Below are positions 198-60,030 of a stretch of 64,000 nt of DNA, piece after piece. Source of the DNA: Caenorhabditis remanei (lineage: Eukaryota; Nematoda; Chromadorea; Rhabditida; Rhabditidae); contig NC_071333.1 in assembly GCF_010183535.1 (NCBI RefSeq), positions 2,418,001 through 2,482,000 on the forward strand, read 5' to 3'. Numbering within the stretch: position 1 is the stretch's first letter; each line of letters begins with the position of its first letter. The notes under the pieces were generated by a model that ran no database searches, was not told the origin of the DNA, and saw only the letters and a list, made by a program, of their open reading frames with translations. Position numbers and translations under genes: made by a program.

Positions 198-418
198 TTT
201 GGAGATGCAGCTTTCAAACGATCTATAAATTTGGAGATAGGTACTTTCCACCCCGCGCAGCTCATTTCTGACAACAAAACCAGCTAACCGTCTCTGCGAG
301 CCGAGTTATGAGCTATCAAACTTTTCATGGCAGAAATGGACTTCCCGTAGCTGAAAGTACCTATGATCAAATTTAAAAATTTATGAAAACCGCGTCTCTA
401 AAGAATTCTCTTGTAAAC
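198..418. repeat. MITE family 1 copy (fold-back)
   Basis: Short imperfect palindrome. Its ends read as AAGGGAA...TTTGGAGAYGCRG and the reverse complement (GCGTCTCTAAAGA...). The same ends recur near 806-1250, 45953-46411, 47493-48975 and 60272-60540. The internal sequence includes a conserved TTTCTGNAG-N-CAAAACC block followed by CTCTGCGAGC. The small open frames over it are not genes. Confidence 0.6.
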
Positions 419-479
419 GTACAAAACTTAATAGAAAACGGATGCGGACTCCTCGGCAATCGGCAAAAACCTGAATGCA

Positions 480-2130
480 ACTGTTTCCCTATTAGCAGAT
501 GGAAGTGGGCGGAGCTGTTAGAGTGATCCATATCGAGAGAAGAATAGGCAATGGTGGGCGGAGTCAAATAAGTATCTTGCGGCACGGGGAAAAGGGATTA
601 GATGTATTGCGTACAGAAAAAATGAGAGAACAATAGATGAGATAAGATCTGGTATACAATCCGACAACAAGTAGATGACGATGATGAGACCATCTGTTCA
701 AAAAGAACTTATGACCATCCAATGCTCATCTCAAACCTGGTTCATAATGAGGGAGACCGATTGGGAAAAAGAAAACGAGGCAAATAGAGTGAGGCGCATT
801 CGGGGAGATGATGACGCGCTTTCAAACGACCTATAAAGTTGGTTATAGGAATTTTCGACCACGGGGAGTCCATTTCTGCAGTCAAAACCTGTTAAATATT
901 TCTGCGAGCCGAATTATGAGCTCTCAAACGTTTCATATGGATAAGCCTGTTCATATGAAATTCCAAATCGGCGGTATATACACCTCCGCGCGGTTCCATT
1001 TGTGTTACCCAGCGGTTTCCCTGTGCTCCTTCGTCGTAAAAATGAAAATATCTTGCGTATACTACTTGTAGATTTCAAATTCCACGTGAAAAAAATGTAT
1101 GTACATACATGAAAAGTTTGAGAGCTCAAAACTCGGCTCTCGTGAACATTTAGCTGGTTTTGACAGCAAAAATGGACTCCCCGAAGTCTAAAATGCCTAT
1201 GACCAAATTCATAAGTCGTTTGAAAGTGGCGTCTCCGAAGAATATTCAAGTTCAATAATTCGGAGAGCAAATTTCAAAAGCAAGAGTTGTCCGAACGACA
1301 TACCTATCATAAATGATGAGATGAGAACGGGTACTCAGAATTCAAAAAAGTCAGAGTCAAATGTCTGTGAACCACGGACTGAGTTTCTAAACCCTACTGG
1401 TAAAAAAGACAGGGTTGGGAAATTCCGGGTTAGGCTAGGCTGATATTGGGACAAAATTTTTGCCGACAGTTATCAAAAAATGGTAGCATGAAAAACTGGG
1501 CGGAGCTGTTAGCGTTACCCATATCGAGAGGAAGCGTAGTCGAGGATGGGAGGAGTCAATTAAATATCTTGCGGCCCGGGGAAAAGGGATTAGTAGTATT
1601 GCGTACAGAAAAATGAGAGAACAATAGATGAGATAAGATCAGGTAAACAATCCGACAACAAGTAGATGACGATGATGAGACCATCTGTTCAAAAAGGACT
1701 AATGACCAACCAACGCTCATCTCGAACCTGGTTCATAATGAGGGAGACCGACTGGGAAAAAGAAAACGAGGCAAATAGAGTGAGGCGCATTCGGAAAGAT
1801 GGTGACGTCACTGAATATCTATAATGGACTCCACGAAGTCTAAAATGTCTATAACCGAACTCATAGGTTGTTTGAAAGTGGCGTCTTCAAAGAATATTCA
1901 AGTTCAATAATTCGGAGAGCAAATTTCGAAAGCAAGAGTTGTCCGAACGACATACCTATCATAAATGATGAGATGAGAACGGGCACTCAGAGTTCAAAAA
2001 AATCAGAGTCAGATGTTGGTGAACCACGGACTGAGTTTCCAAACCCTAATGGAAAAAAGAGACAGTGTCGGGAAATTCCGGGTTAGGCTGTTATTGAGAC
2101 AAAATTTTTGCCGAAAGAAATCAAGAAAGT
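480..2130. repeat. Tandem duplication containing MITE family 1
   Basis: Two direct copies of a longer unit. Bases 487-810 match 1498-1805, and 1180-1430 match 1830-2085. The first unit carries a full family-1 MITE (about 806-1250). The second has lost most of it and keeps only the right arm (about 1808-1900). No credible gene is present. Confidence 0.65.
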
Positions 2131-2589
2131 GGTAACATGAAAAACGAGCCAGTTCTTATTAGTTTACATGGTAGTATCACTTGTTCTGCGCTGTTGTTCG
2201 CTCAAGAAATTCCTCAAAATACAGCGAAGTTCTAAAACTGCGCCCGAGGCGCGCCAGTTTGTGAAACATCTACTTTTGGTTCAAAATAAGCCTATTTAAT
2301 CGATTTTCCAAACAGTTCTGCTATAGTTTTCTTTTTTTCTGGCAAATTTGTATAAAAGTTGAGCTTCTGTGTCTAGAAATGACCAAAATCTGAAAACGCG
2401 CTCAAGGCACGCCAGTACCAAGCACACAGGCAATTTTCAACACTTTTTTTGCAAATTAGAGTCTTATTTATATGTCAAGATTGATCTTTTCTCAAAAGAG
2501 AGGCCAATGTTTAGAGAAATAACTCGCTTTTCCGTGTGATAACAAAAAAACGTTAAAAAAGTTGAAGCAATCGGAAAACTTGCTACCCA

Positions 2590-2850
2590 GTCGAATGGTG
2601 GAGAGGAGGGTTTTTTCGTATTGAAAAAGCGGAGAAGACGGGCAGATATCCTCCTCGTCTTTTTTTGTTATTCACGTGAAAAGGAGTAGGGTAAAGGGAG
2701 GAAAGAAGATAGCGAGAAAAAAGAATGAAATGTGAAAAAGTAATAGAAAGCGAGAGGGGGGAACTTTTAATGCTTTTCTCTTATCATGTGAACACAATGC
2801 TACACCATGATAAGGGAAATATGGATTGGGTTGGTAAACAGATTGTATTT
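2590..2850 (-). repeat. Dispersed repeat S, inverted copy
   Basis: Reverse complement resembles the segments at 10030-10330 and 17470-17750. Shared blocks are GATATCTGCCCGTCTTCTCC and the ATCATG...CATGATAAG motif. The 90-residue minus-strand open frame here is low complexity and lies wholly in the repeat, so I do not call a gene. Confidence 0.5.
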
Positions 2851-5300
2851 TTTTGCTTGATGTAATAGTCATAGTTACAATTTCTTTGTCTTGACCCTTT
2901 ATCTTACCGCCCTTTGATGATTCACCGTCTGGCTGAATCATCAACTATCTTATATTTGTAATATCAGAAGCTCCGCCTCCATGCAGGAGGTCTTTGACAA
3001 GAAAAAATTTTTTTGAATTGTAAACTTAAAGAAAAACGAAAAAATCAAGTTTTCATGTCAGTTTTTGTTAATTTCCAGGGGTTTCTTGCAAGTTTTCGAC
3101 TCAAAATATAGTTTTTCTTGAAAATTATTAACTGCGGCAGAATTCTAAATCCTACGGGGACACTTTTTTTTATATAGATAGCCGATTTGGCATATTTTCA
3201 TTGCAAGAAATCAGTTTTGCCTCAAAGTTATTTTTGCCTTTTTCTCATTCATTTTTGTAAGTTTTTCGAAAGTTTTTTGATCTTCATGACAAATTTTTCT
3301 AACAAGTCAAAATTTTGAAAAAAGTTCGAAATTCCGCCTAAACAGAGCAAAAACTAGTTTCTGGGAGGACTTTTCTGGGAGTTCGGCCACGGCGAATCCT
3401 AGGCCATGTAGATTCACGGAGATTTTTTTTTGAGAAAATAATCATTTTCAAAGTCCAAAAATGGGGTGTTCTGTAGTTTTTAACAGGAAAAACTGGGTTT
3501 TTTGATGAAAAAATGAGGAAAATTGAAAAAATTGAGTTTTTCTATCAGTTTTCTTTGATTTTCAGCTGTTTTTCGCAAGTTTTTGACTCAAACTTTAAAA
3601 AAGTGTTTTATTCTGAAAAATTACAAACTTCCACTCATTTTTCTTCGATTTTCGCCAGCAATACTGAATTGTTCTTTTCTGAAAATAATTTACACAAGTT
3701 TTTAGTCAAACAATGTAACATTTTCAGCTACTTTTCACCGATTTCTGTCTCCTGGTGCGCCTTTGACGCGTTTCACTAAAGTCGCTATTTCGCATAAAAT
3801 AATTAGAGTTTTGCACCAAAAATGACATTTTTATTCTATTTCAAAATTTTTTTTTGAAAAAACTGGCAATTTTAGCCAAATTCAACCAAATTTTCAGAAT
3901 TTTCGAGCGATTGAAAGTTTTGAAAATAAAAACCGAAAATCAAGTTAAAATCACAAATCTCACACATGAATACACACAAAACAAGAATCCAATACAAAAA
4001 ACAAAAGTCGGTATGCCAAATCAAGATTTTCTATTTTTTGTCTTCACTGACGTCTTTTGGGTGATACAATAAAAATTCATGATGAGCCAATTGATTGAAG
4101 TTATTTATAGTTAAGTTTTTGCAATTTTAGGTGACTTTTCAGTTGAAAAATAAGAATATGTATATAATAGAAAGAAACTTCTTGTGAAGCTTCAATTGGG
4201 GTGAGGAAGGATTACAAAAACAGAAAAGAAACTTCCTAGGAAGTTTCTAGAATGTGAGGAGGAAAAAAGAAAAGGAAAAATCTAGAAAACGAAAGAAATG
4301 AAAAACTGGAAGAAAAGAAAGAAGCTTCTGGTAGCTTCTATCAAGAATGAGGGGTAGAAATGAAAAACTGTCTCGCGCCGGCCCGTGGGGCGGAGCCAGA
4401 CTGTTTTCTGGTGAGAGACAATGATCTAGAGAAAAAGCAATAGAGGGAAAAAAAAACATTTGGAAGGTGAGACATGTGGAATTTGTCATGCTGCGGGGAA
4501 GGAGAGGGTGCCCTTTGGGCCCGTCTCCTCTCCCGCAGCACTCGGATCGAGTACAGTTTTCAACCAAATCTGCAAAACTCAATTCAGTAATCATTCGACC
4601 TACTTCTAGTTTCTCATTTTTCATATTTCCGCAAGACATTATTCTGAAATTATAGAAACTTTTTGTGAAAGTTGGAATTGGTTTGAAATACCTTAATATT
4701 TCGACTGAACTAGCAGTTGTAACTTTTTTAAATATGAGTCTTACACATGAAATATTATAAGCTGAATTTCAATATGTAAGCTGATTTTCAGTGAAAACTA
4801 GCCTGTTTTAAATTCTTCTCATTTGAATTAAGTAGCTTCTATGTTATTGAAAATAGTTGTGTGAAAATCTAAAATTTCATTACTAAATCCACATTTTTCC
4901 AACAAACTGTTTTTTTACTCCCCCGTTTAGATTCCGAATAAAAGACACCACGTTCTACGTTTCTTGTGTTCTCCCCTCCCCGTTATCCCAGGCAGAAGGT
5001 AATTGGGACGAGAATCGATAGGCTGTGTACACCGCGAATGCCCCCTCGGTCGCCTTCGCCTCCTCCAAAACAGTCGCGTGTTTTTGTGTGAGCGCACTGT
5101 GGGGACAACAGCCCCCGCTGAGAGAGACCACGCGAATAGAGGATACGCAGAGAAAACAAGTCTTTTCTTCTCGCCCTCTTCTTCTTTCTTTTCGATTACA
5201 TCGGCGAATATTCATCGGTTTTTAGTTTTTTTTTCAACGTATGTTATTGAATTTTACTACCGTTTGGGTCATAAAATAACAATTAAGCTACCTTTTTTGA
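2850..5300. other. Gene-poor AT-rich stretch
   Basis: Long T- and A-runs and short degenerate repeats. A GC-richer patch lies at 4370-4560 with a GGGCCC-containing inverted repeat. Bases 4930-5170 are a GC-richer patch with GAATAAA at the left. No convincing coding region was seen. The short open frames here lack family signal and splice context. Confidence 0.4.
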
Positions 5301-5365
5301 GTTCATTTGCATCCATTCGCCGTTTTACCTGCATTTCAGTCAAAAATGAATGTTTATTGTTTCAG

Positions 5366-7748
5366 TCTTCTCAAATCGACTATGAAAAAGAATGTGACGG
5401 ACGAGCAGAGCCACCACAGAGCCGGAGGACCTCAAAAATGTGCCGAGTTCGAGTGGATTCGTGTTTGGAAGGCCCCAGGTGGGTATTTTCATTTGAAAAA
5501 TCAATTATTACAAAATATAGCTTCAAAAATTTGAAAAATTGAACAAATATTGTTTGAAAATTCTCACACAAGCTGTAAAAAACTAAAACACTACGTTTTT
5601 GTATTTCCATGGATTGGAGACCAAAATTGTGTCTCATTGAAGGCAGCTCTGGAGACCGAATTCTCCCAATCGCTCATTTCGACTTTTAAGAACAACTTTT
5701 TGCAAATCCATCATAACAATATCATACAAATCATACCAGTTTTCATTAGGAGAGCAATTGGATAAATTTCGAATTTGGAATTTCGGGTATTATGGCTCTT
5801 GCTGGGCAGCCAATCATTTTTTTGCATCATTAATGTGAAAAAGTTATTTTCGAAAAACTTGGTTGATTTGTACCAGAAGTCATGTTTTTTTTTTAGAGGT
5901 TTTTTGGGTTTTTTGAAATTATTCTGCCAATATTCACTAATTTTGAGACAAAACGATTCTGTAAGTTTCTTAAAAGTCAGACAGTAGACAGAGATAAGAT
6001 AACGTCAGTTAATATAGCTGTTCGTTTCTTAAAGCCGAGCGAAAACTTTAAATTTTGTTAAATAGAGCCCCATAAGTTGGTTTTGAGTGTTAAAGCTCTT
6101 CCAACAGTTTGTGAAAAACTTTCTCAGTGCGTTCTTCAGCTTTGAAGAAGTTCCTAGAAACTTCCGGATAACCGAATCAAACTAAGGATGCATAGAAGGA
6201 TGCCGGGGGTTAAATTCTACCAGTCACTTGATATAAAGTCCAAACTGTTCATTTTCTGTGAAGTCTCCGGAAGAATATCGAGAAAATAAAGCTTTTTCCC
6301 ACTGATGCAACGATTTTGCAAGTATTGCGTCATTTTTTGTGCAAAAACTCTTCATCATCAGGATCAATCGACGATTTTTCACCTGTACAAGACGTTTTTT
6401 GCAAAATTATTGTCGATTCACTCCACATTTTCAGTCACAGATTCTGTTTTTCGCTTATAGAAGAATGGACCTATTCAAATCAAGTGAAAGCACTGTTGAG
6501 CGAACAGTTGCAAATAATGGGACTAGACTCATGTAGAGTACAGATGGGAAAAAATAACAAAAACCTGTTGATATTCTGCGAGAGCCTGAAAAATATAAAC
6601 TTTCATTTTTCAGAATCACTACACATCGATTCCACAACGACCGGAGAACTTGAAGATTGCCCAACCGACATCAACAGTTCGTGCCGCGATTCGACAACCA
6701 TTGATGTCATCGACTCTATTCCTAACATCGAGTCGATCATCTGGTTTTCAATACTCCGTCGTCGTCTAGGGTGAGGAGACGGAAAATATCATGGTGTCCA
6801 AAGCCATGTGCACGGCCTGCATTTTCCTACTCGTGGCCTAGAAAAATCAGTGGGTTCGGCCAGCAAGACCATAGCAATTTCTTAAGCAAAAATTGCGTTT
6901 TTGGTCATTTTTTGAAATTTTTTGATGCCGCGTTGTTGAAAATCTCTAAAACTTCAAAGATAACAATAACAAATTTGAAAATAATTCCATCTTGCGCCGT
7001 GGGTGGCCAACCACTCATGATTTGCAGAAGTTACTCAAGGTCAGGCTCAGAATAAGTGTTGAAAAAGCAAAAGTGACTCAGAAACGTTACCAGTCGGCAA
7101 GTTTGCCCTTTACGCTTCCCTTTCCGCTTTGGCATGTTCAAAAGGTGAGGTTCATGATTTCGTTTTTGAGAAAAGTCGAAAATCTCAAAAATCGGCTGCA
7201 ACGCGTGTTCTCCACACCGTGACAAAATTTCACGAACAATTTGGCTGCCGACTGAATGATAGCTTTGAAGGCAAGCTTTTTAAGAAAAGCTTGCTTTCAG
7301 TGCTTTTTTTTTGTTAAAAAACAACGAACGACCAACAATGTAATCCCAAAAACGTATTCAACTCTAAATTTTGCAGTTTCCGTTCTCCTCATCATGCTCT
7401 ACATCAGGCAGAGATTCTTCCCACCGAGATCGACTCATCACACTACGCCACAGGATCCCCACCGCTCCTCAACGTTGAGTCCTACAGACAGCAGTTGCTC
7501 CAGAATCTCTCCCAGCACTCGCATCCCACCGCCAATACCATCTCGAGCTCCGGTGACTTCACCAGTTCTGCAGTCTCCGCTGGTAAGCCCATTCACAATT
7601 GTCGCTCCAATACCACAATGCCCACCACAGTTGCCAACCATGACCCCTTCAATGAAACTACCGGATCCTACTGCTTTCGAAGCTGAGACTCGAATCGAAG
7701 AAGAGCGAAAGAAGCATTGTGTCCAAAGGGAAGTGTCTGTTGGATAGT
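5366..7748 (+). pseudogene. Unidentified degenerate exon cluster
   Basis: I do not recognise this gene. Several segments look like exons: 5366-5479 (acceptor GTTTCAG, donor GTGGGT), about 6615-6770, 7029-7143 (acceptor TTTGCAG, donor GTGAGG) and 7374-7748 (after TTTGCAG). The last is rich in Pro, Ser and Thr. Its plausible frame changes around 7540: an upstream frame containing ESYRQQLLQN gives way to one ending IEEERKKHC before a stop, which suggests a frameshift. Adjacent segments do not join cleanly in one frame. It could be a decayed gene or non-coding spliced sequence. Confidence is low. Confidence 0.25.
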
Positions 7749-49825: not shown

Positions 49826-50253
49826 TTTCCTGTGAGTCAACAAAAAACGGAGGGGCATAAACAGATTAAAACGTGATTCTTCTTCCTTCTTCAGATATTG
49901 AGCGTTCACAATCCAGAAAAGTACCCAATTTTGCTCGAAAAATACATAAGTCCTAAAATTTTTAGAACCCAACAAAAGATTTCTAGTCAATTCCGCAATT
50001 TACAACATGATACTAAATAATATTATTTATTGAAAAGAAAAAAGTAGTGAACACGGGAGACCTTATCAGGCCCCTCCTCTCACTAGGGAATGATCCCGGG
50101 TCAATATATAATTAAGTGTCATCAAGACTGGAGATATTACAGGGAGTGTATTGTGAAAAATCAAGTTCTGTCTGCATCAGAGATCAAAATAAACTTTGAA
50201 AATCGGCATTTTCTTTCCAGATAACTAGAAAATGGAAATGGAAATCAGAACTG

Positions 50254-51172
50254 ACATGGAATGTACTTTGATTGCCCCCCCTAAAGTACCGATTTTTTTT
50301 GCTCATTTGATGAGTTTTGCGAAGGATATATAAGATATAACGGGTTTTCCTGTGACGTGACCTGGTTTTTGAAAAATTAAGATTTTTCAAAAAAAAAGTT
50401 TTTTTTCGAAAAATTTTCTAAATCAATTTTTTTCACTGGCAAGATGTAATATTGAAAAGAAAGGATTATATCATAAAAAAAGCAAATTTCAAGGGCTTCA
50501 AGAATAAAAATTGAATTTGTAAAAAAAAGTTTTTTTTGAGTGTCAAATTTTTAAAAAACTGACACCAATTCGAATTTTCGAAAATTTCAAACAGCTCTAA
50601 AAAAATTTAACGGGATTATTCATTTTTTTCCTGTTAAGGGTAAAAAGTGCAAAAGATGTACATTATTGTTCTGCAAAAAAATTAGGGGGGTACCCCCCAT
50701 TTACGAGAGAAATTTTGATTTGAATGTTTTTTTTCAGTATACAAAAAGGGCATGTAAGATAAAAGGTCAGATCTCTAACAGGACACTTATTTTTAGGAAA
50801 ATAGTCAAGAATATGTTTTTCATTCTGTGCCGTTCCCTATTTAAATATTATCGCGCGGTCCTGTCGACTTTCCTACTCACCAAATGTCTTCAAAGATCGT
50901 TAATTTTCACTATTTTGAAATTTCAAACACTCACTACTTCTTCAAAACTGTGAGAAAAGAGTTGAAACTAGAAGAACACGCTTTTAAACGTGTTTTCGGT
51001 TAAAAAATGTTATTTTGGGCAATTTTTAGAAAATTTTTTTTTTTCCGATTTTTCATAAGGGGGGACCACATGAAATTTCGGCTAGAAATGAAAAAAAAAT
51101 TTTTTTCTTAAAACAACACAAAGCTGTTTTTTGTTGCTTGGAAACCTGGAATACCTTTAAAAAAATTGTTTT
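50254..51172 (+). repeat. Left terminal inverted repeat
   Basis: Inverted copy of 58677-59598. Features: GATTGCCCCCCCTAAAGTAC near the tip, GGGGGGTACCCCCC at about 50686, and AAGGGGGGACCACATG at about 51057. The 95-codon frame 50666-50953 is identical in both arms and has no recognisable domain. I do not call it a gene. Confidence 0.9.
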
Positions 51173-52028
51173 AATTGTCCCAATTGTTTTTAAACAAAAA
51201 TACGTTTTAAAACTAGTTCTCCAAGTTTCAACTTTTTTCTCATAGTCTCTTTCATTTTTTGTGAGAACTTACGTTTTAAAGGTTTGTAATTAGTTATTTA
51301 TATTCTGAACTATGATATATTTAAATAGTTTTATTTAGTAAAATAAAAATAAAATGACGGATTGTTAAAGAGTTTCGTTAATTCAAGGATGCAAGTGTTC
51401 CAATGCACACGATGCGCAAATTAATATTCCACATGTGGGATAGGAACACTTGCAGTATGAAAATTGACGGCAATTAGCACATAACTTTCCACCAGTTGCT
51501 TTCACGTTCATGCAATACTGATCAGGAGTTTCAAAATACGCGGGCCTCTTGTCAAGTATTTGATTCAAAAAGAACCCTCTCTCCATCAGGCCCTTGTAGC
51601 GCGGAGCTTTAAATTGATTCAGTATATACTGAACGATTTGCAGCTGCCGTTCTCTTCTTGCAATAATTATGTTAGAGTGGGTGTATCGAATCTGTGTCTC
51701 AAGCTTTCGAATGAAATTTTTAAGCTGCCTGTTGAAGCATAAATCCAATGGTTGCAGCTTGCTTGTTGTTCCATCGGGCAGTACGACAAACTCAAGGTTC
51801 TTGCTGTTTACGGTGTTTTCCTCTATCATTCTCTTCCATCCCGGCCATCCGTCAAGAATAAGAACACTGTCCTTTGGTACAACAGGCATGAATACTTTCT
51901 CCAGCCACTCGATAGCGAGATCGCTGGTCATCATTCCAGATTTGGTGTTAGTGACATATAACTCGGTGAATGGAGCCACCATCCTTTGGAACGATCGAGG
52001 GGTTTGTTGTTCGGCCAATGTTATAAAA

Positions 52029-53879
52029 CCTATTCTCCGTAAGACTCGAGCATCACCCCTGTATGTAGGGGCGTAGAGCCCACAGGTAAGATAGTGTTTA
52101 CTCAGTTTGTATGCATGTACTATGGGTCTTCGGTAACCCGTATGCAAAATTTTGGCGCCCACCTACCGGTCCCTGGGTTACTGTAGGTGCTCAAATGTGT
52201 AAAGCTTAAATTTTTTCTTTTAAGTCGTAGAAGCCCAATTTTTTTAGTGTAGTTTATAGACGTTTATAAAAGTTTTTTCACAAAGTTTCAGAACATTACA
52301 AAAGAATTTTGCCGAGTTATTCGCAAAAAACCAATTTTTTGGAGAATTTTTTCTGTAATTTTAAAATTTTCGGTTCTTAAAACAAAAAACACCCCCGGCA
52401 AACTTTATTTAAAACAAAAGTCTTTCGATGAGTTTACAAATAAAACATATTTGATTAAGTTTTAAGTCTTCGCAGAAGTCGAAAAGAGCCCATGTAAAGT
52501 ACTGAAATTTTCAAAACTGAATATTAGTTGATTTTCTTGATGAAAATTAATAGAGCACAATTTTCTAAACATTTTTTGTATTACATTTCTTTTGATAACT
52601 TTATTACATCCTGCTAAAATTTTGAGGTTTTGTCAGAAAAAATTTTTTTTTTCAAATTTTTTAAATGTTAAGCTCTAATGATGATGATAGTTTTGCTCAG
52701 CCAAAACCTAGAAAATTGCTGTAGTTATGTGTTTTTGTTCACTCTGAGACTAATGTGTGAGCTGGGAGTCGTTTTTCCTTTTTTGTTAAGAAGAGGGTCC
52801 TCATTTTTTGTATCAAGGTAATTCTCCAGAGTGAAACGCGATATTGTCGACGATATTTCAACATAAGATACATTTTATTTAGACTAAAAATGAACGGTAT
52901 GTTTCAGAAGAAACAACTCCGTTTCCAGAAAATTTCATACACGTTTCACTTTTGGAACGATTTTTTGGTCGAGTCACTTTGAGACATTGTAACTTTGTTT
53001 ATTTTAAAGGATTTCATTAAATTCAAATTGTGGCAAAAAGGTGAAAAACTTGGCTACAAAAAAGCTTATTGGACCAATCTATCAAAACTAAAACCGGGAG
53101 AGATACGACTCATATCGTGAAAATTGACAGTACTCGTGAAATCAGAAAATGGCAATATTCGAAAAAAGGTCTCTCGTGGAGTGTGATGCTCCTATATCTT
53201 CTAAAACGTCCCACTATTAATTTTAAAGATTTATGGGTCTATTCACAAGATAGCAGTAAATCAAAAAAACTGCTTTTCAAAAATGTTAAAAATTATCATT
53301 TTTTGACAAAAACTCAAAATTTTAGCAGGATGTAATAGAGTTATTGAAGAAAGTGCAATAAAAAAATGTTCAAAAAATTGTGCTCTATTCATTTTCATAA
53401 AGAAAATTAACTAAAATTCAGTTTTGAAAATTTCAGTACTCTACATGAGCTCTTTTCGACTTCTGCGAAGACTTAAAATTTCTTCAAATATGTTTTATTT
53501 GTAAACTCATCAAAAAACTTTTGTTTTAAATAATGTTTGCCAAGGGTGTTTTTTGTTTTAAGAACCGAAAATTTTAAAATTACAGAAAAAAAGATCCAAA
53601 AAATTTGTTTTTTGCGAATAACTCGACAACATTTTTTTGAAATGTTTTGAAACTTTGTTAAAAAACTATTATAAACGTCTATGAACTACACTAAAAAAAT
53701 TGGGCTTCTACGACTTGAAAGAAAAAATTTAAGTTTTGCACCTTTGAGCACCTACAGTAACCCAGGGGCCGGTAGGTGGGCGCCAAAATTTTGCATATGG
53801 GTTACCGAAAACCCATAGTACATCTTAATATAAAAATCTGTTCCTATGGTACACGTTGCTCGAGTCTTACAGAGAACAC
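52029..53879. mobile_element. 1851-bp fold-back element nested in the transposase
   Basis: Arms of roughly 650 bp are inverted complements: GTAAGACTCGAGCA near each tip, then TTTGGCGCCCACCTACCGG and CTAATATTCAGTTT-type blocks inward. It is flanked by identical 9-bp repeats GTTATAAAA (52020-52028 and 53880-53888), a target duplication typical of Mutator-like elements. Removing it with one repeat restores the transposase frame (...GKTFIT to LAEQQTP...). The 88-codon plus-strand frame inside is not supported. Confidence 0.85.
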
Positions 53880-54891
53880 GTTATAAAAGTTTTTCCAATA
53901 ATTTCTCCAGCAGCAGAAATGCACGGGTTTACAGTAAAACTGTGGCTTAAAGCATTTTTCCTCTGAGCATATTTTTCAACCTTTTTTTTTCCTCGCACAT
54001 CCAAGCATCGGTTTTTAGTCATCTCGTACTTCACAGAAGTTTGGTCCACGTTGAAAATCTATAAAATCACACGTTCAAAAAGGGTATCGGAGAATTTTGT
54101 AATAAAAAACTTACGTGGCTTGGAGCATATTTTCTTTTTAGTCTGGGAATCTCTGTCAGTAAAAACTTTCTGACTTTTTCTTCTTCGCTAGGTCCACTGT
54201 TTGCTTTCGGCTTCACAATTCTGCGGTCGATATGTCTGCTGACCAAATTCAATCTTTTCTTTATGCCAGCCACCCAGTTTCTCGAAGCCTAAAACATTAA
54301 ACTTCTCAATTCAATATTAGTAAAAAATACACACCTTGAAGTTCTTCACTCCAAAGCATACTGCTTGATTCATTCCCGTCCTTTGAATAAAGTCCTCGTG
54401 AATTTCATCATTATTATCGATTGCCGCTTTCACCATATTCACAACCCTATCATTTAATAGTTCGAGCGCATGTCTTTGATTAGTTTTCTGAGATCTAATT
54501 TCTTTTCGAATTCTGGAAACGATATTGTATTAAACTAGTAATTATCCAGCACAAAAACTAACCGTCTGATTTCACATTTCGCGTCTTTTTTAGAAGCGGG
54601 GAAATGAAAACGTCTGATGATCTCATCAAGTGATATCTTTTTAGAATCGAATTTTTCAATTATAAACTTTTTTTGTTTTTCCGTCAAACGAAGTGGAGTG
54701 TATTTGCTGACCTTTGGCGGGGAAAAGTCTGAAAACAGTATTTCTTATTGCTTCTCTTCTCGAATAAAACTAACCACTGTCACAACTAATTTCTTCAGAT
54801 GTAGAACTAGGTTCAGAAGAATTTTTCATTTGTTCCTCTAGAATCTCTGAAAAATCAAGCATTGTAGTTTAGCTTTCAAGAAATTACTTAC

Positions 54892-55813
54892 TTTTGGCGC
54901 TCTTTAGCTTTTTCAATTCGTCGCGGTCTTTAACTTCAGTAATTGCTTTATTAATTTCTTTCGCAATTGTTTCAGCAGTTATATTTGCAATAACATTTTC
55001 ATCCGGCTTCACTTTTTGGATACGTCCTGTTTTCCTTTGCCGCAGTTCAAACTTCTTGGGAAATTTACCTTTGGTTTTTTTGTTGGTAAAATTTGATCGA
55101 ATACTCCTGCCATGAACTTCCAGATGGTCTCCTAATGTATTCGATTCGTTTCTAGTTTTGTCAATTTTTGATTCTTCTGATGGCAGATCAGATAAATCTG
55201 AGAAATGTTGGGCTGGCGTAAGAGGCACAACGTTGTTCTCCTGATATGTATCTTGTGCTAATTTTAAACTTTTGAGAATATCTGCGTTTGCTTTTCTAGT
55301 TGCAGAAGTATCAATGATTAGATCATCATCTTGCAGCTTCATCATATAATGTAGTTTTCTCAAAGATTCTGTGTTGGCTTCCAGGTATCTTTTAGCGTTA
55401 TGACAAGTGAAAACACCACAATCATTTGAATCAAACGCTTGTTTCTGGGCTTCTTCTTTTTCCGCTCGTTCAATAAAGACATCTTCAATATTTTCTCCAA
55501 AGTACTCATGAGCTATTTTTTCCGCTTCGCTTTCACTTATCATCCGTTTTCCTGTAGACGAATCCAAAACATGTACTCGAATCATTCGTGAATTTTCCGA
55601 GTCTTTTCCGAAAACAACCAAAACAAAATGATCTCTACGTAAGACAGGCATCAGTAGTTTTTGAGGTTTGAAAGCTCGTACAAAAGACGTGTATTCGGAG
55701 AAAGCATCGGTGAATGATTGCGTTGAGTGAGCATCAAAATAATCGTTGAGAAAATTGGGATGAATTAGACCAAATTGAAACGATTCTTCTTTACCAGTGT
55801 TATAATCTCCTAC
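54892..55813 (-). other. Ulp1 catalytic exon of the transposon gene
   Basis: A single 922-base exon carrying the cysteine-protease core. HFNLND-like LIHPNFLNDYF precedes the catalytic His. Asp lies 22 residues on and Cys 48 further, within DCGVF. The oxyanion Gln is seven residues before Cys, against six in yeast Ulp1. The exon runs on into a basic tail (KKTKGKFPKKFELRQRK) and ends in phase 1, matching the next exon. Ulp1-family enzymes cut after the Gly-Gly of SUMO or related modifiers. Confidence 0.8.
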
Positions 55814-57953
55814 CTGTAATGTATTCTGTTTATTAAAGTTTCTTATAGCAAAGTTACCATCTCATACAGAAGATGAAAAACTCCTTGGTCTGTCATCTTT
55901 GAGTTCTTCTTAAGGGCAGCTTCTACATCAATGTCCTCCAGGCCAAAACGTAAACTATTTTGAAGCCCAGATTCTTTTTCAAAGGAAGGACCATGAATTT
56001 CCTAAAATACAAAATTTGTAAAATCTAGAAAAGTTCTTTTTACTTACTCTTTGGTTTATGTGACCGTACGATTCCGAAGATGCGTTATTTGGGTTTTTCT
56101 CGGTTGCTGCTCGTGCTTGATTTTCCTGATCGTTTCGCATTGTTTTGTCAGTTTTTTCATAATCGTTTTTTAGTTTTTCTTGGGTGTTATCATTATAGTT
56201 GTCGCTTTTTTCATTTTGATCTTTTTCGATCAAATTTTTCTGTTCTTTGACTTTCTTTCTTTCTTTGTTTTTGTTCGACTGAAATTGTTTTGTAACATGT
56301 TTTTTAACGAGCATTTAAACTAACCTTTGAGCTAGCTCCATCTGTTTCACTAACAGTTGCTTCGCTTCCATCTTGGATATCCTTTGAAGTTTTTTTATCT
56401 GATCGGAACAAATTTTTAAATGTTTTCCATGAAATCCAGTTACTCGTTTTCATTTCATTTCCATTAGATTTTTTGAGTTTCTTCTTTTTTCCCATTTTTT
56501 CTATGGCTCCCTTGTATTTCTGAAACTCATAAATACCGCAGAAGTTTTAATTGTTTTAACACATATAATGATAGTTCTGTTACATATATTTTTCCTTTCA
56601 ATTTACCTTGTTCTCTCCAACTATTTCAGTTTTCACAGCCACAGTCTGATTCGAATTGTATGGTTTATAACTATATCCATCTTGAGTTGCTTCCATATGA
56701 AGAATTCGTTTCTCTTCATTTCTTGCTTGTAGTTCTTCTTTTTGTAGAGCAAACGTTTGCCGTGATGAAAAGCTCTGTAAATTTTGAAGCTCTGATTGGT
56801 TCAAGTCATTTTCACTCACTCTATTTTCTTCAAGTTTTCGGAGTACTCTAGCACTTGTGTCTGGATCAATCTCTTCTGATTTGTCATCTTTTTTTGAATA
56901 TTTTTGTTTAGTCTTCGACTTGTTTTCTTTTTCCAGCCTCCTCTTTGCTTCATTCCTCCAATAGTTCTGAAATTGTAAGTTAGCATTCTACTTGCTAAAA
57001 AAATTTGGTTATTCAATTTAAACTTGAAATTCAACAAACTTACTTGATTTTCTTTGGGCTTACAAAAATCACTATTGCTGCTCTGGATGGTTTCCATGCC
57101 AAAAACTTCATTACTATGGTTATGCAACGCCATTGACAAACTTAAAGCGCACGATGGTGTAGAGTGATTCTGTAATTATTCTACTCATCTATGCAACGTT
57201 AATGTTGAAAATCTCACAGCAAAACTTAAACTCCTCTCGTGATTTTTCGTCAAACATTCAAACATTGGATAGTCTTCCCGGCCGAAGTTTTGCTCTCTAT
57301 ACTCCTCGACATTCTAAAAAATCAAATTATTTTAAAGTTTAGCTTCAAAAACTTACGGATTCCATTAGTTCGTCCATGTGATTAAACTTTTTGCTTCCTT
57401 CTTTGTTGTCAACGGTAAAAAAAGTAGGATTCCACAAATCGATCGACGTGCAATCTTTATTGCGATGAATATCCGATGCTGTTCTCTCTGATTTGAATGA
57501 ATCCACAGACATTTTGACATTGACAGTCTCAGGCTCTTCAACTATTTTATCAAATCGAGATTCTACGATAGGGTATGTTGCAGTAAGTTTGGATGCTTCC
57601 ATTGTTTTTCCAGTATTTTCCCAGTATTTCTCAGCCGTGTGTTTTTTGTCTTCAAAATACTTATCCGAAAAAGACTTGGTCGCAGAGAGCATGGAGCCAA
57701 ACGGAGTATTCTTTTTTGCGTGCATGTTTTTTAATTCACTTGGACCTTTTATCAGAAAAATTGAGGTAGGGTCCTCTTGCGGGAACTCAATTTTCTCAAT
57801 GCGCAAAACAGTGTTTTTTGGAGAAATCAGAGAATCATAAGACGGTGGTGGTAACAATGATGAAAAAGTTGATTCAGTTAATCGATGATAATTTCCCCAC
57901 AGCCCGTTAGATTTTGAATACTGTGGAATTGAAGATTGTTCTGGCATTAACAT

Positions 57954-58676
57954 TTTCTGAAAGTAAAATTTTGGGAAATAGATAAATAGTCTTAGAATAA
58001 AAATATATTTCAAAACAAAATATTAAAACGAATGAATGAAATATTGTCAAACTCAAAAAAAAAAAATAATATAGAATACGAACACTGCCGAGTGAATCTG
58101 TTTGCGCGCTACAAATTCAGTATACAGTATACAGTATACAGTATTCAATATATATAAGTTCAGTATACAAATTCATTGACGCTGTAAAACTGCTTTGGCG
58201 GTGTCGGCGTCTTTCCCATCATCAAAAACTGCCGAAAAAAATATGTGTATCTTATATTGCAACTTTTATCTTATCAACAAATCAAATTCAAATTAATTGA
58301 AAAGATATCAAATGAAACAATAAATAAATAATAAATAATATCAAATAATAAAAATACATAGAATAAATTCTAGAGAATAAATGTTTTGTAAGAAATTTTT
58401 CAATTTTTAACTTTACCCGCAGTTTTGAAGAAGTTAAGTGTGTTTGAAGTTTCAAAATATCGAAAATGAATAATTTTTGAAGAAGTTTTATGATGAGGAA
58501 AGTTAATAGAACGGCGTATTAACTTTCAAATACGTAACAATACATCACCAAAACACAAAATCTCAGCCAACCACTCTCATAACAAACTTACATTGATCTC
58601 AGGCATCTGATATATTATACTAACATTTAACACTCATTTCTTCACTCATTCACCACTGAAATTTTTCCTAAACCAG
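57954..58676. other. 5' region of the transposon gene
   Basis: AT-rich. It contains a TATACAGTATACAGTATACAG run (about 58122-58142), a possible promoter-proximal repeat, and a partial second copy of the TIR-proximal block (58423-58520 resembles 58903-59000). No coding signal. Confidence 0.4.
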
Positions 58677-59598
58677 CCTAAAACAATTTTTTTGAAGGTA
58701 ATCCAGGATTCCAAGCAACAGGAAATTGTTTTGTGTTGTTTTAAGAAAAAAATTTTTTTTTTCATTTCTAGCCAAAATTTCATGTGGTCCCCCCTTATGA
58801 AAAATCGAAAAAAAAATTTTTTCTAAAAATTGCCCAAAATAACATTTTTTAACCGAAAACACGTTTAAAAGCGTGTTCTTCTAGTTTCAACTCTTTTCTC
58901 ACAGTTTTGAAGAAGTAGTGAGTGTTTGAAATTTCAAAATAGTGAAAATTAACGATCTTTGAAGACATTTGGTGAGTAGGAAAGTCGACAGGACCGCGCG
59001 ATAATATTTAAATAGGGAACGGCACAGAATGAAAAACATATTCTTGACTATTTTCCTAAAAATAAGTGTCCTGTTAGAGATCTGACCTTTTATCTTACAT
59101 GCCCTTTTTGTATACTGAAAAAAAACATTCAAATCAAAATTTCTCTCGTAAATGGGGGGTACCCCCCTAATTTTTTTGCAGAACAATAATGTACATCTTT
59201 TGCACTTTTTACCCTTAACAGGAAAAAAATGAATAATCCCGTTAAATTTTTTTAGAGCTGTTTGAAATTTTCGAAAATTCGAGTTGGTGTCAGTTTTTTA
59301 AAAATTTGACACTCAAAAAAAACTTTTTTTTACAAATTCAATTTTTATTCTTGAAGCCCTTGAAATTTGCTTTTTTTATGATATAATCCTTTCTTTTCAA
59401 TATTACATCTTGCCAGTGAAAAAAATTGATTTAGAAAATTTTTCGAAAAAAAACTTTTTTTTTGAAAAATCTTAATTTTTCAAAAACCAGGTCACGTCAC
59501 AGGAAAACCCGTTATATCTTATATATCCTTCGCAAAACTCATCAAATGAGCAAAAAAAATCGGTACTTTAGGGGGGGCAATCAAAGTACATTCCATGT
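58677..59598 (-). repeat. Right terminal inverted repeat
   Basis: Inverted copy of 50254-51172. It ends CATTCCATGT at 59598, after which the duplicated flank of the right arm resumes (GAATATAATGTAGATCTACT). Confidence 0.9.
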
Positions 59599-60030
59599 GA
59601 ATATAATGTAGATCTACTTTGAGAAATTTTTCAGTTCTGGAGTTGAAGGGAAGACTGTCTATTCCTTCATAGTTCGAAAAGCGGTAGATATTTCTCTCAA
59701 AGCATATTCCAAAAAATTTAATTCTCGCTGTTTTAGAATTCTGTTGAACTTACTTTCTGGCATTCTTATTTTCAGCCATAACAGAAAAAAGATGACTCCA
59801 ATCGGACAATTAGCAAAAAAGTTACTTATTTTCAGTCAATTTCAGAGTTGCCAGTAGCCACGTCATAATATATTTGTTGAACATGATTGATCTCTTTCTC
59901 TCTGGTCTCCTTTTTCCTCTCTCTCTCTGTATACCTTCTCTTTTTATTTCTTCTCCGCCACTCTTTTTTTCTTTTCCTGCGTCTCGTGCCGCGCAACACT
60001 ATTTTCTTTCTTTCCACTCATCTGAGTGAG
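59599..60030 (+). repeat. Distal part of the duplication arm plus shared flank
   Basis: 59599-59880 is the inverted match of 44400-44680 (ATCTACTTTGA, TTTTTCAGTTCTGGAGTTGA, CTGTCTATTCCTTC). 59770-60030 also matches 33770-34020 near gene C, including CGTGCCGCGCAACACTATTT. Confidence 0.7.

What the first reader, a model, noticed from the sequence alone, without database searches (positions are those of the whole stretch)
51383..57953. Transposon gene joining a Ulp1 SUMO protease to a DDE transposase
Fourteen minus-strand coding segments, all with standard splice sites and matching phases, give one frame of about 1358 codons. A C48/Ulp1 catalytic core (His, Asp, Gln, Cys all present) sits in the same reading frame as a CENP-B/Tc5-type DNA-binding region and a DDE transposase with three acidic residues. 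Ulp1-like proteases are known as passengers of some plant Mutator-like elements. I know of no description of one fused to a Tc5/pogo-type transposase in nematodes. It could let the transposase control its own or the host's SUMOylation, or self-process.
Basis: partly seen in the sequence, partly recalled or inferred. Interest (0 to 1): 0.95.

Follow-up and report, generated by a model that had tools for sequence, protein, structure and literature searches.

The report
Worm transposon fusing protease to transposase
A large worm transposon appears to encode one protein that joins a SUMO-protease-like enzyme to the enzyme that moves the element, a pairing known from other transposon families but not found by us for this one; this particular copy has been broken by another transposon.

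Summary
The window (130-Mb Caenorhabditis genome, probably C. remanei) holds a 9.3-kb DNA transposon at 50255-59597 with inverted repeats of 0.8-0.9 kb and a TNA target duplication, the Tc4 hallmark. Its minus-strand gene gives one 1362-codon frame: a divergent Ulp1/C48-like (clan CE) protease (His645, Asp667, Gln708, Cys715) upstream of a Tc5-type DNA-binding region and a DDD transposase (Asp1092, Asp1207, Asp1243). Two other predicted proteins, CRE_17034 (C. remanei) and CAEBREN_22452 (C. brenneri), have the same order, and the three transposases form one group (100/100). The protease scores below Pfam's C48 cut-off; profile-profile and fold comparison place it with SUMO/NEDD8/ubiquitin proteases; its substrate is untested, and no transcript was seen. 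A relative of the protease lies upstream of one Helitron and decayed ones near polymerase-B-like pieces, so the module may move between elements. Transposase-Ulp1 fusions (Ginger1) and Ulp1 in Mutator, Crypton and nematode NeSL/Utopia elements are in print: a new variant of a known kind.

The parts
50255..59597 (.). whole Tc4-type DNA transposon, 9343 bp, interrupted by a second element
   Evidence: inverted arms 50254-51063/58789-59598, 810 nt, 99%; 907 of 919 alignable bases identical
50255..51063 (+). left terminal inverted repeat (core)
58789..59597 (-). right terminal inverted repeat (core)
   Evidence: other copies end at the same base
50252..50254 (+). target site duplication TGA (left)
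   Evidence: sequence
59598..59600 (+). target site duplication TGA (right)
   Evidence: sequence
55858..57953 (-). exons 1-7, 583 aa, lysine-rich; exon 7 aligns with the protease relatives; as a whole no match outside this gene in the genome at E 0.001
54892..55813 (-). exon 8: C48/Ulp1-like protease domain and linker helix; His645 55630-55628, Asp667 55564-55562, Gln708 55441-55439, Cys715 55420-55418
54775..54846 (-). exon 9: linker joining protease to transposase; holds an in-frame ATG (Met897)
54115..54728 (-). exons 10-12: HTH/CENP-B-like DNA-binding region of Tc5 type
   Evidence: HTH_Tnp_Tc5 E 0.011, below cut-off; aligned in P0001 and P0002
53881..54058 (-). transposase exon, 5' part with first catalytic Asp1092 (54046-54044)
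51383..52020 (-). transposase exon, 3' part behind the insert and its right-hand target repeat: Asp1207 (51853-51851), Asp1243 (51745-51743), Tc5-type Cys-rich C-terminus, stop
   Evidence: DDE_1 8e-13, Transp_Tc5_C 8e-4
   Evidence: arms 52115-52577/53361-53823 92%; ten other full-length matches of 52030-53877; uninterrupted site in L045; flanks

Best explanation
It is a copy of a large Tc4-type cut-and-paste transposon whose ancestor encoded a single protein: a divergent Ulp1/C48-like cysteine protease fused N-terminally, through a conserved linker helix, to a Tc5-type DNA-binding region and a DDD transposase. Shown: the in-frame order, the catalytic residues of both enzymes, the TNA ends, the same order in two other predicted proteins, and the interruption of this copy by another element. 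Inferred: the DNA-binding part carries the protease to the inverted repeats or to the transposition complex, where it strips SUMO or another ubiquitin-like modifier from proteins bound there. The most attractive target is the SUMO-dependent nuclear Argonaute/HDA-1 silencing machinery, so that the transposase brings its own local anti-silencing enzyme; repair factors or the transposase itself are other possible targets.
For: Frame and domains. CRE_17034 (42% identity over 95% of a 780-residue query) and CAEBREN_22452 (45% over 66%) align over protease, linker helix, HTH and DDD in the same order (CRE_17034 as predicted begins inside the protease domain). Protease H, D, Q, C invariant in four of four sequences. 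hhalign of the protease profile against five C48 sequences of this genome, one of them NeSL-like: probability 92.6%, E 4.4e-7, against at most 0.4% in 20 column-shuffled controls. Foldseek of the P0002 model: SUMO and ubiquitin proteases of clan CE hold the 17 places at E 0.001 or better (probability 1.00, TM by target 0.36-0.58). TNA outward at 12 of 12 distinct ends read in the fetched loci, TNAG at 11 of 12, the Tc4 target rule. Tree: the three fused transposases are one side of a 100/100 branch against nine relatives of this genome. In both relatives no Met lies between linker helix and HTH (my reading). In C. elegans, piRNA silencing needs SUMO and UBC-9, and HDA-1 SUMOylation is required for Argonaute-directed silencing (PMC8131101: abstract and one section).
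Confidence: 0.6

Rival explanations
1. Two genes of one element: the protease ends with the stop just past exon 8, and the transposase starts at Met897 in exon 9 of a separately trans-spliced message; gene predictors fused them.
For: Stop at 54884-54886 on read-through of the exon 8 donor (ORF 54884-55861) and an in-frame ATG in exon 9; Caenorhabditis genes are often in operons (recalled).
Against: The interval is 45 nt with ordinary intron ends and, as printed, no AATAAA; the linker helix at the end of exon 8 is kept in two relatives that lack a Met between it and the HTH.
Confidence: 0.2
2. The protease is a captured passenger that no longer matters to the transposon.
For: A profile of the protease found it in no fetched locus of the protease-less transposases, including a Tc5-type one (L019, Transp_Tc5_C 2e-27); the protease family also lies upstream of a Helitron; a further C48-like frame on C53 has lost the catalytic His and Cys.
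Against: The four catalytic positions are kept in four of four sequences that are 30-41% identical to the window's, and the fusion is predicted in two species.
Confidence: 0.2
3. The domain self-processes the fusion protein, as viral clan-CE proteases process theirs, releasing the transposase.
For: Viral clan-CE proteases are among the fold matches; the protease is N-terminal with a linker of variable length.
Against: The top Foldseek rows are deconjugating enzymes. Cleavage sites in the linker were not tested.
Confidence: 0.12
4. Artefact: two unrelated neighbouring elements joined by over-splicing.
Against: Both domains lie between one pair of 99% identical arms, and the same order recurs in two other predictions.
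Confidence: 0.05

Closest known systems
Tc4/Tc5-type elements of Caenorhabditis (TcMar group)
   Same: TNA duplication inside CTNAG and DDD residues (passages of PMC11071193), fold-back repeats (title of the 1991 Tc4 paper in its reference list), Tc5-type HTH and C-terminal region
   Different: 9.3 kb, 14-segment model, N-terminal protease plus long leader; Pfam Tc5 models only weakly matched
Ginger1 transposases with a C-terminal Ulp1 or OTU domain (PMC2836005, passages)
   Same: deconjugating cysteine protease fused to a DDE transposase in an animal DNA transposon
   Different: Gypsy-integrase-type transposase and C-terminal protease there; Tc5-type transposase and N-terminal protease here
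Ulp1-bearing Mutator elements of plants, hydra and lancelet (named in PMC2836005)
   Same: Ulp1 domain carried by a DNA transposon
   Different: different transposase superfamily and target duplication (recalled)
NeSL and Utopia non-LTR elements of nematodes (PMC4640811, passages)
   Same: N-terminal Ulp1-like protease in a nematode mobile element; frames that look like NeSL, with C48, occur in this genome
   Different: reverse-transcriptase elements; the C48 of those frames passes Pfam's cut-off, this one does not
Crypton elements with a C48 peptidase (PMC3212892, passages)
   Same: C48 carried by a DNA transposon; its authors suggest domain shuffling between elements
   Different: tyrosine recombinase; oomycete (and CryptonS) elements

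Membership tests
Tc4-type DNA transposon | TNA target duplication in a CTNAG-like site | tested here: met
   TGA on both sides of the window element (site CTGAA); TNA outward at 12 of 12 distinct ends in the fetched loci, TNAG at 11 of 12; one pair (L038) reads TAA on one side and TTA on the other, not a clean duplication (L037 shows the same copy as L036 and was counted once)
Tc4-type DNA transposon | DDD catalytic triad in a DDE_1-type transposase | tested here: met
   DDE_1 E 8e-13; Asp1092, Asp1207, Asp1243 invariant in three of three sequences
Tc4-type DNA transposon | Tc5 HTH and C-terminal Pfam domains | tested here: inconclusive
   HTH_Tnp_Tc5 E 0.011 and Transp_Tc5_C E 8e-4, both under cut-off; Transp_Tc5_C 3.3e-5 in P0002 and 2.2e-4 in P0001, also under cut-off, and no HTH_Tnp_Tc5 row for either
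Peptidase C48 / clan CE | His-Asp-Gln-Cys catalytic set in order | tested here: met
   invariant in four of four; aligned to C48 sequences of this genome
Peptidase C48 / clan CE | Pfam PF02902 gathering score | tested here: inconclusive
   17.0 bits against 20.7; P0002 20.3, C53 17.2, P0001 not reported; the 914-residue part of the window protein not reported
Peptidase C48 / clan CE | fold of SENP/Ulp proteases | tested here: inconclusive
SUMO protease | cleaves SUMO | not testable with these tools
   needs biochemistry
Ginger1 transposase-Ulp1 fusion | Gypsy-integrase-type DDE followed by a C-terminal protease | tested here: not met
   DDE_1/Tc5-type transposase, protease N-terminal
single fused polypeptide | one mRNA | not testable with these tools
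   no RNA data at hand

The most novel reading that the evidence does not exclude
A clan-CE protease module circulates among unrelated mobile elements of Caenorhabditis (fused to a Tc4-type transposase, upstream of a Helitron replicase, among polymerase-B-like relics) because it disarms the host's SUMO-dependent small-RNA silencing; in the Tc4-type lineage it has been welded to the transposase, so that the DNA-binding domain delivers the de-modifying enzyme to the element's own repeats.
Probability: 0.2. Interest if true: 0.85.

Novelty: new variant of a known kind. Interest (0 to 1): 0.52.

Why it matters
If the fusion is expressed as one protein, it adds the Tc4/Tc5 group to the transposon families that joined a ubiquitin-like protease to their transposase, which points to repeated selection for this pairing. 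In nematodes the reason can be tested directly, because piRNA silencing there depends on SUMO (PMC8131101, abstract and one section): a tethered deconjugating protease would be a concrete transposon counter-measure.

Tried and rejected
Rejected: the last 'intron' as real. Rejected as too strong: calling it a SUMO protease outright (Pfam C48 under cut-off; NEDD8 and ubiquitin proteases match as well). Led nowhere: alignment search of the 5.8-billion-protein set with A1 (none at E 0.001 among 7994 candidates) and a protease-only search (none at E 1 among 761, not even P0001 came up); both depend on shared five-residue words, so they say little. PHROGs gave no match better than E 0.17 for three proteins. 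The leader has no match outside this gene, so whether exons 1-6 truly belong is open. Papers: searches (0 papers; 3; 15 of 186 listed; 8; 20 of 200 listed) showed no paper of this combination by title or abstract start; two pogo surveys have no word beginning with 'protease' in the held text. Repbase and subscription journals were not available.
Full report
WHAT IS THERE. The window is part of a 130.47-Mb genome in 186 contigs. The two named relatives found are from Caenorhabditis remanei and C. brenneri; from that and a recalled assembly size I take it for C. remanei, though CRE_17034 itself is not intact here. Two inverted arms, 50254-51063 and 58789-59598, are 99% complementary; 907 of 919 alignable bases agree. 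TGA stands on both sides, so the element is 50255-59597. At 12 of 12 distinct ends of this repeat in the fetched loci the flank begins TNA, at 11 of 12 TNAG (L037 shows the same copy as L036 and was not counted twice). One pair (L038) is not a clean duplication. CTNAG with TNA duplicated is the Tc4 rule according to PMC11071193 (passages). The genome search with one arm gave 55 matches, 40 of 226 candidates being scored, among them close inverted pairs.

THE GENE. Fourteen minus-strand segments give 1362 codons and one stop. Twelve introns of 43-87 nt have ordinary ends. The protease exon's 307 open codons exceed the longest frame (218) in 40 Markov resamplings. Pfam: DDE_1 E 8e-13; Transp_Tc5_C E 8e-4 and HTH_Tnp_Tc5 E 0.011, both below cut-off; nothing for the 914 residues before the HTH taken whole; Peptidase_C48 E 0.0056, below cut-off, for the protease stretch alone.

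THE LAST INTRON IS A TRANSPOSON. 52030-53877 has 92% inverted arms, full-length matches at ten other places at 82-91%, and TTTTATAA(C) repeated at its flanks. The site is uninterrupted in L045 and in both relatives. The donor that would keep the frame is GTTCTC; the better GTAAG seven bases on would shift it. This copy's transposase is therefore interrupted; whether splicing ever removes the insert is untested.

RELATIVES. One protein search scored 7993 candidates and found two at E 0.001: CRE_17034, 719 aa, which as predicted begins inside the protease domain, and CAEBREN_22452, 817 aa. Both align over protease, linker helix, HTH and DDD. Identity to the window for CRE_17034 and CAEBREN_22452: protease core 46% and 33%, stretch behind it 24% and 16%, HTH region 40% and 41%, DDE core 67% and 62%, C-terminus 43% and 42%. 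The fused three form one side of a 100/100 branch against nine other transposases of this genome (root only for drawing). No intact second copy was found: near copies show transposase pieces only, a CRE_17034-like HTH relic with stops lies on C1, and the six matches of the leader all lie in this gene.

OTHER HOMES OF THE PROTEASE. C53:14583-15716 encodes a 37% relative about 1-2 kb upstream, on the same strand, of a Helitron replicase (Helitron_like_N 1.1e-18, PIF1 9e-19). Other Helitron matches (C90, C116, C129, C119, C18 and places on C3 and C1) have no protease match beside them, so this is one Helitron, and neighbourhood is not proof of membership. Eight matches 57-69% like the C53 protease lie in C4:20.956-21.006 Mb; the one stretch fetched there also holds pieces resembling polymerase B (DNA_pol_B_2 E 3.6e-4, below cut-off).

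MECHANISM. Shown: the joint frame, both sets of catalytic residues, the ends. Inferred: tethered removal of a ubiquitin-like modifier. The SUMO link to piRNA silencing in C. elegans (PMC8131101, abstract and one section) makes local anti-silencing the most testable version. The Ginger authors proposed action on repair factors (PMC2836005, passages). I put the fused polypeptide at about 0.75 and the anti-silencing role at about 0.25.

NOVELTY. No held paper has Ulp1, transposase and Tc5 together (0 papers); one search gave three unrelated ones by title; one search listed eight, of which I read passages of three. Ulp1-transposase fusions (Ginger1) and Ulp1 in Mutator, Crypton and nematode NeSL/Utopia elements are in print. 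The protein records existed already, CAEBREN_22452 with a ubiquitin-like-protease name. Hence a new variant of a known kind.

Noticed in passing
L039:8583-9716 (-) and 284-7475 (-), contig C53: A relative of the window's protease lies 1-2 kb upstream, same strand, of Helitron replicase and helicase frames.
   Followed up: partly
L040 minus strand, 485-aa frame (about C53:16154-17608): A second C48-like frame whose catalytic His and Cys positions are changed, possibly a dead protease paralogue.
   Followed up: partly
L060 (C53:1-6000), minus strand: A frame with a ubiquitin carboxyl-terminal hydrolase match (Pfam UCH 7e-7) beyond the Helitron; the contig also has long runs coding LGLGLG/SLSLSL, as telomere-like repeats would.
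   Followed up: no
L061 (C4:20984501-20988500): Decayed copies of the C53-type protease beside pieces resembling polymerase B.
   Followed up: partly
L007 and C98 places: Frames of 585 to 2492 aa with a C48 domain; L007 also has reverse-transcriptase-like sequence and looks like a NeSL element (my reading); nine of the 29 matches lie on contig C98.
   Followed up: partly
window 52029-53880: A 1.85-kb fold-back family with at least ten other full-length copies, 8-bp (or 9-bp) target repeats and splice-like ends.
   Followed up: partly
G000:C1:14098193-14098501: A relic with stops, 72% identical to the HTH part of CRE_17034, without a protease match.
   Followed up: no
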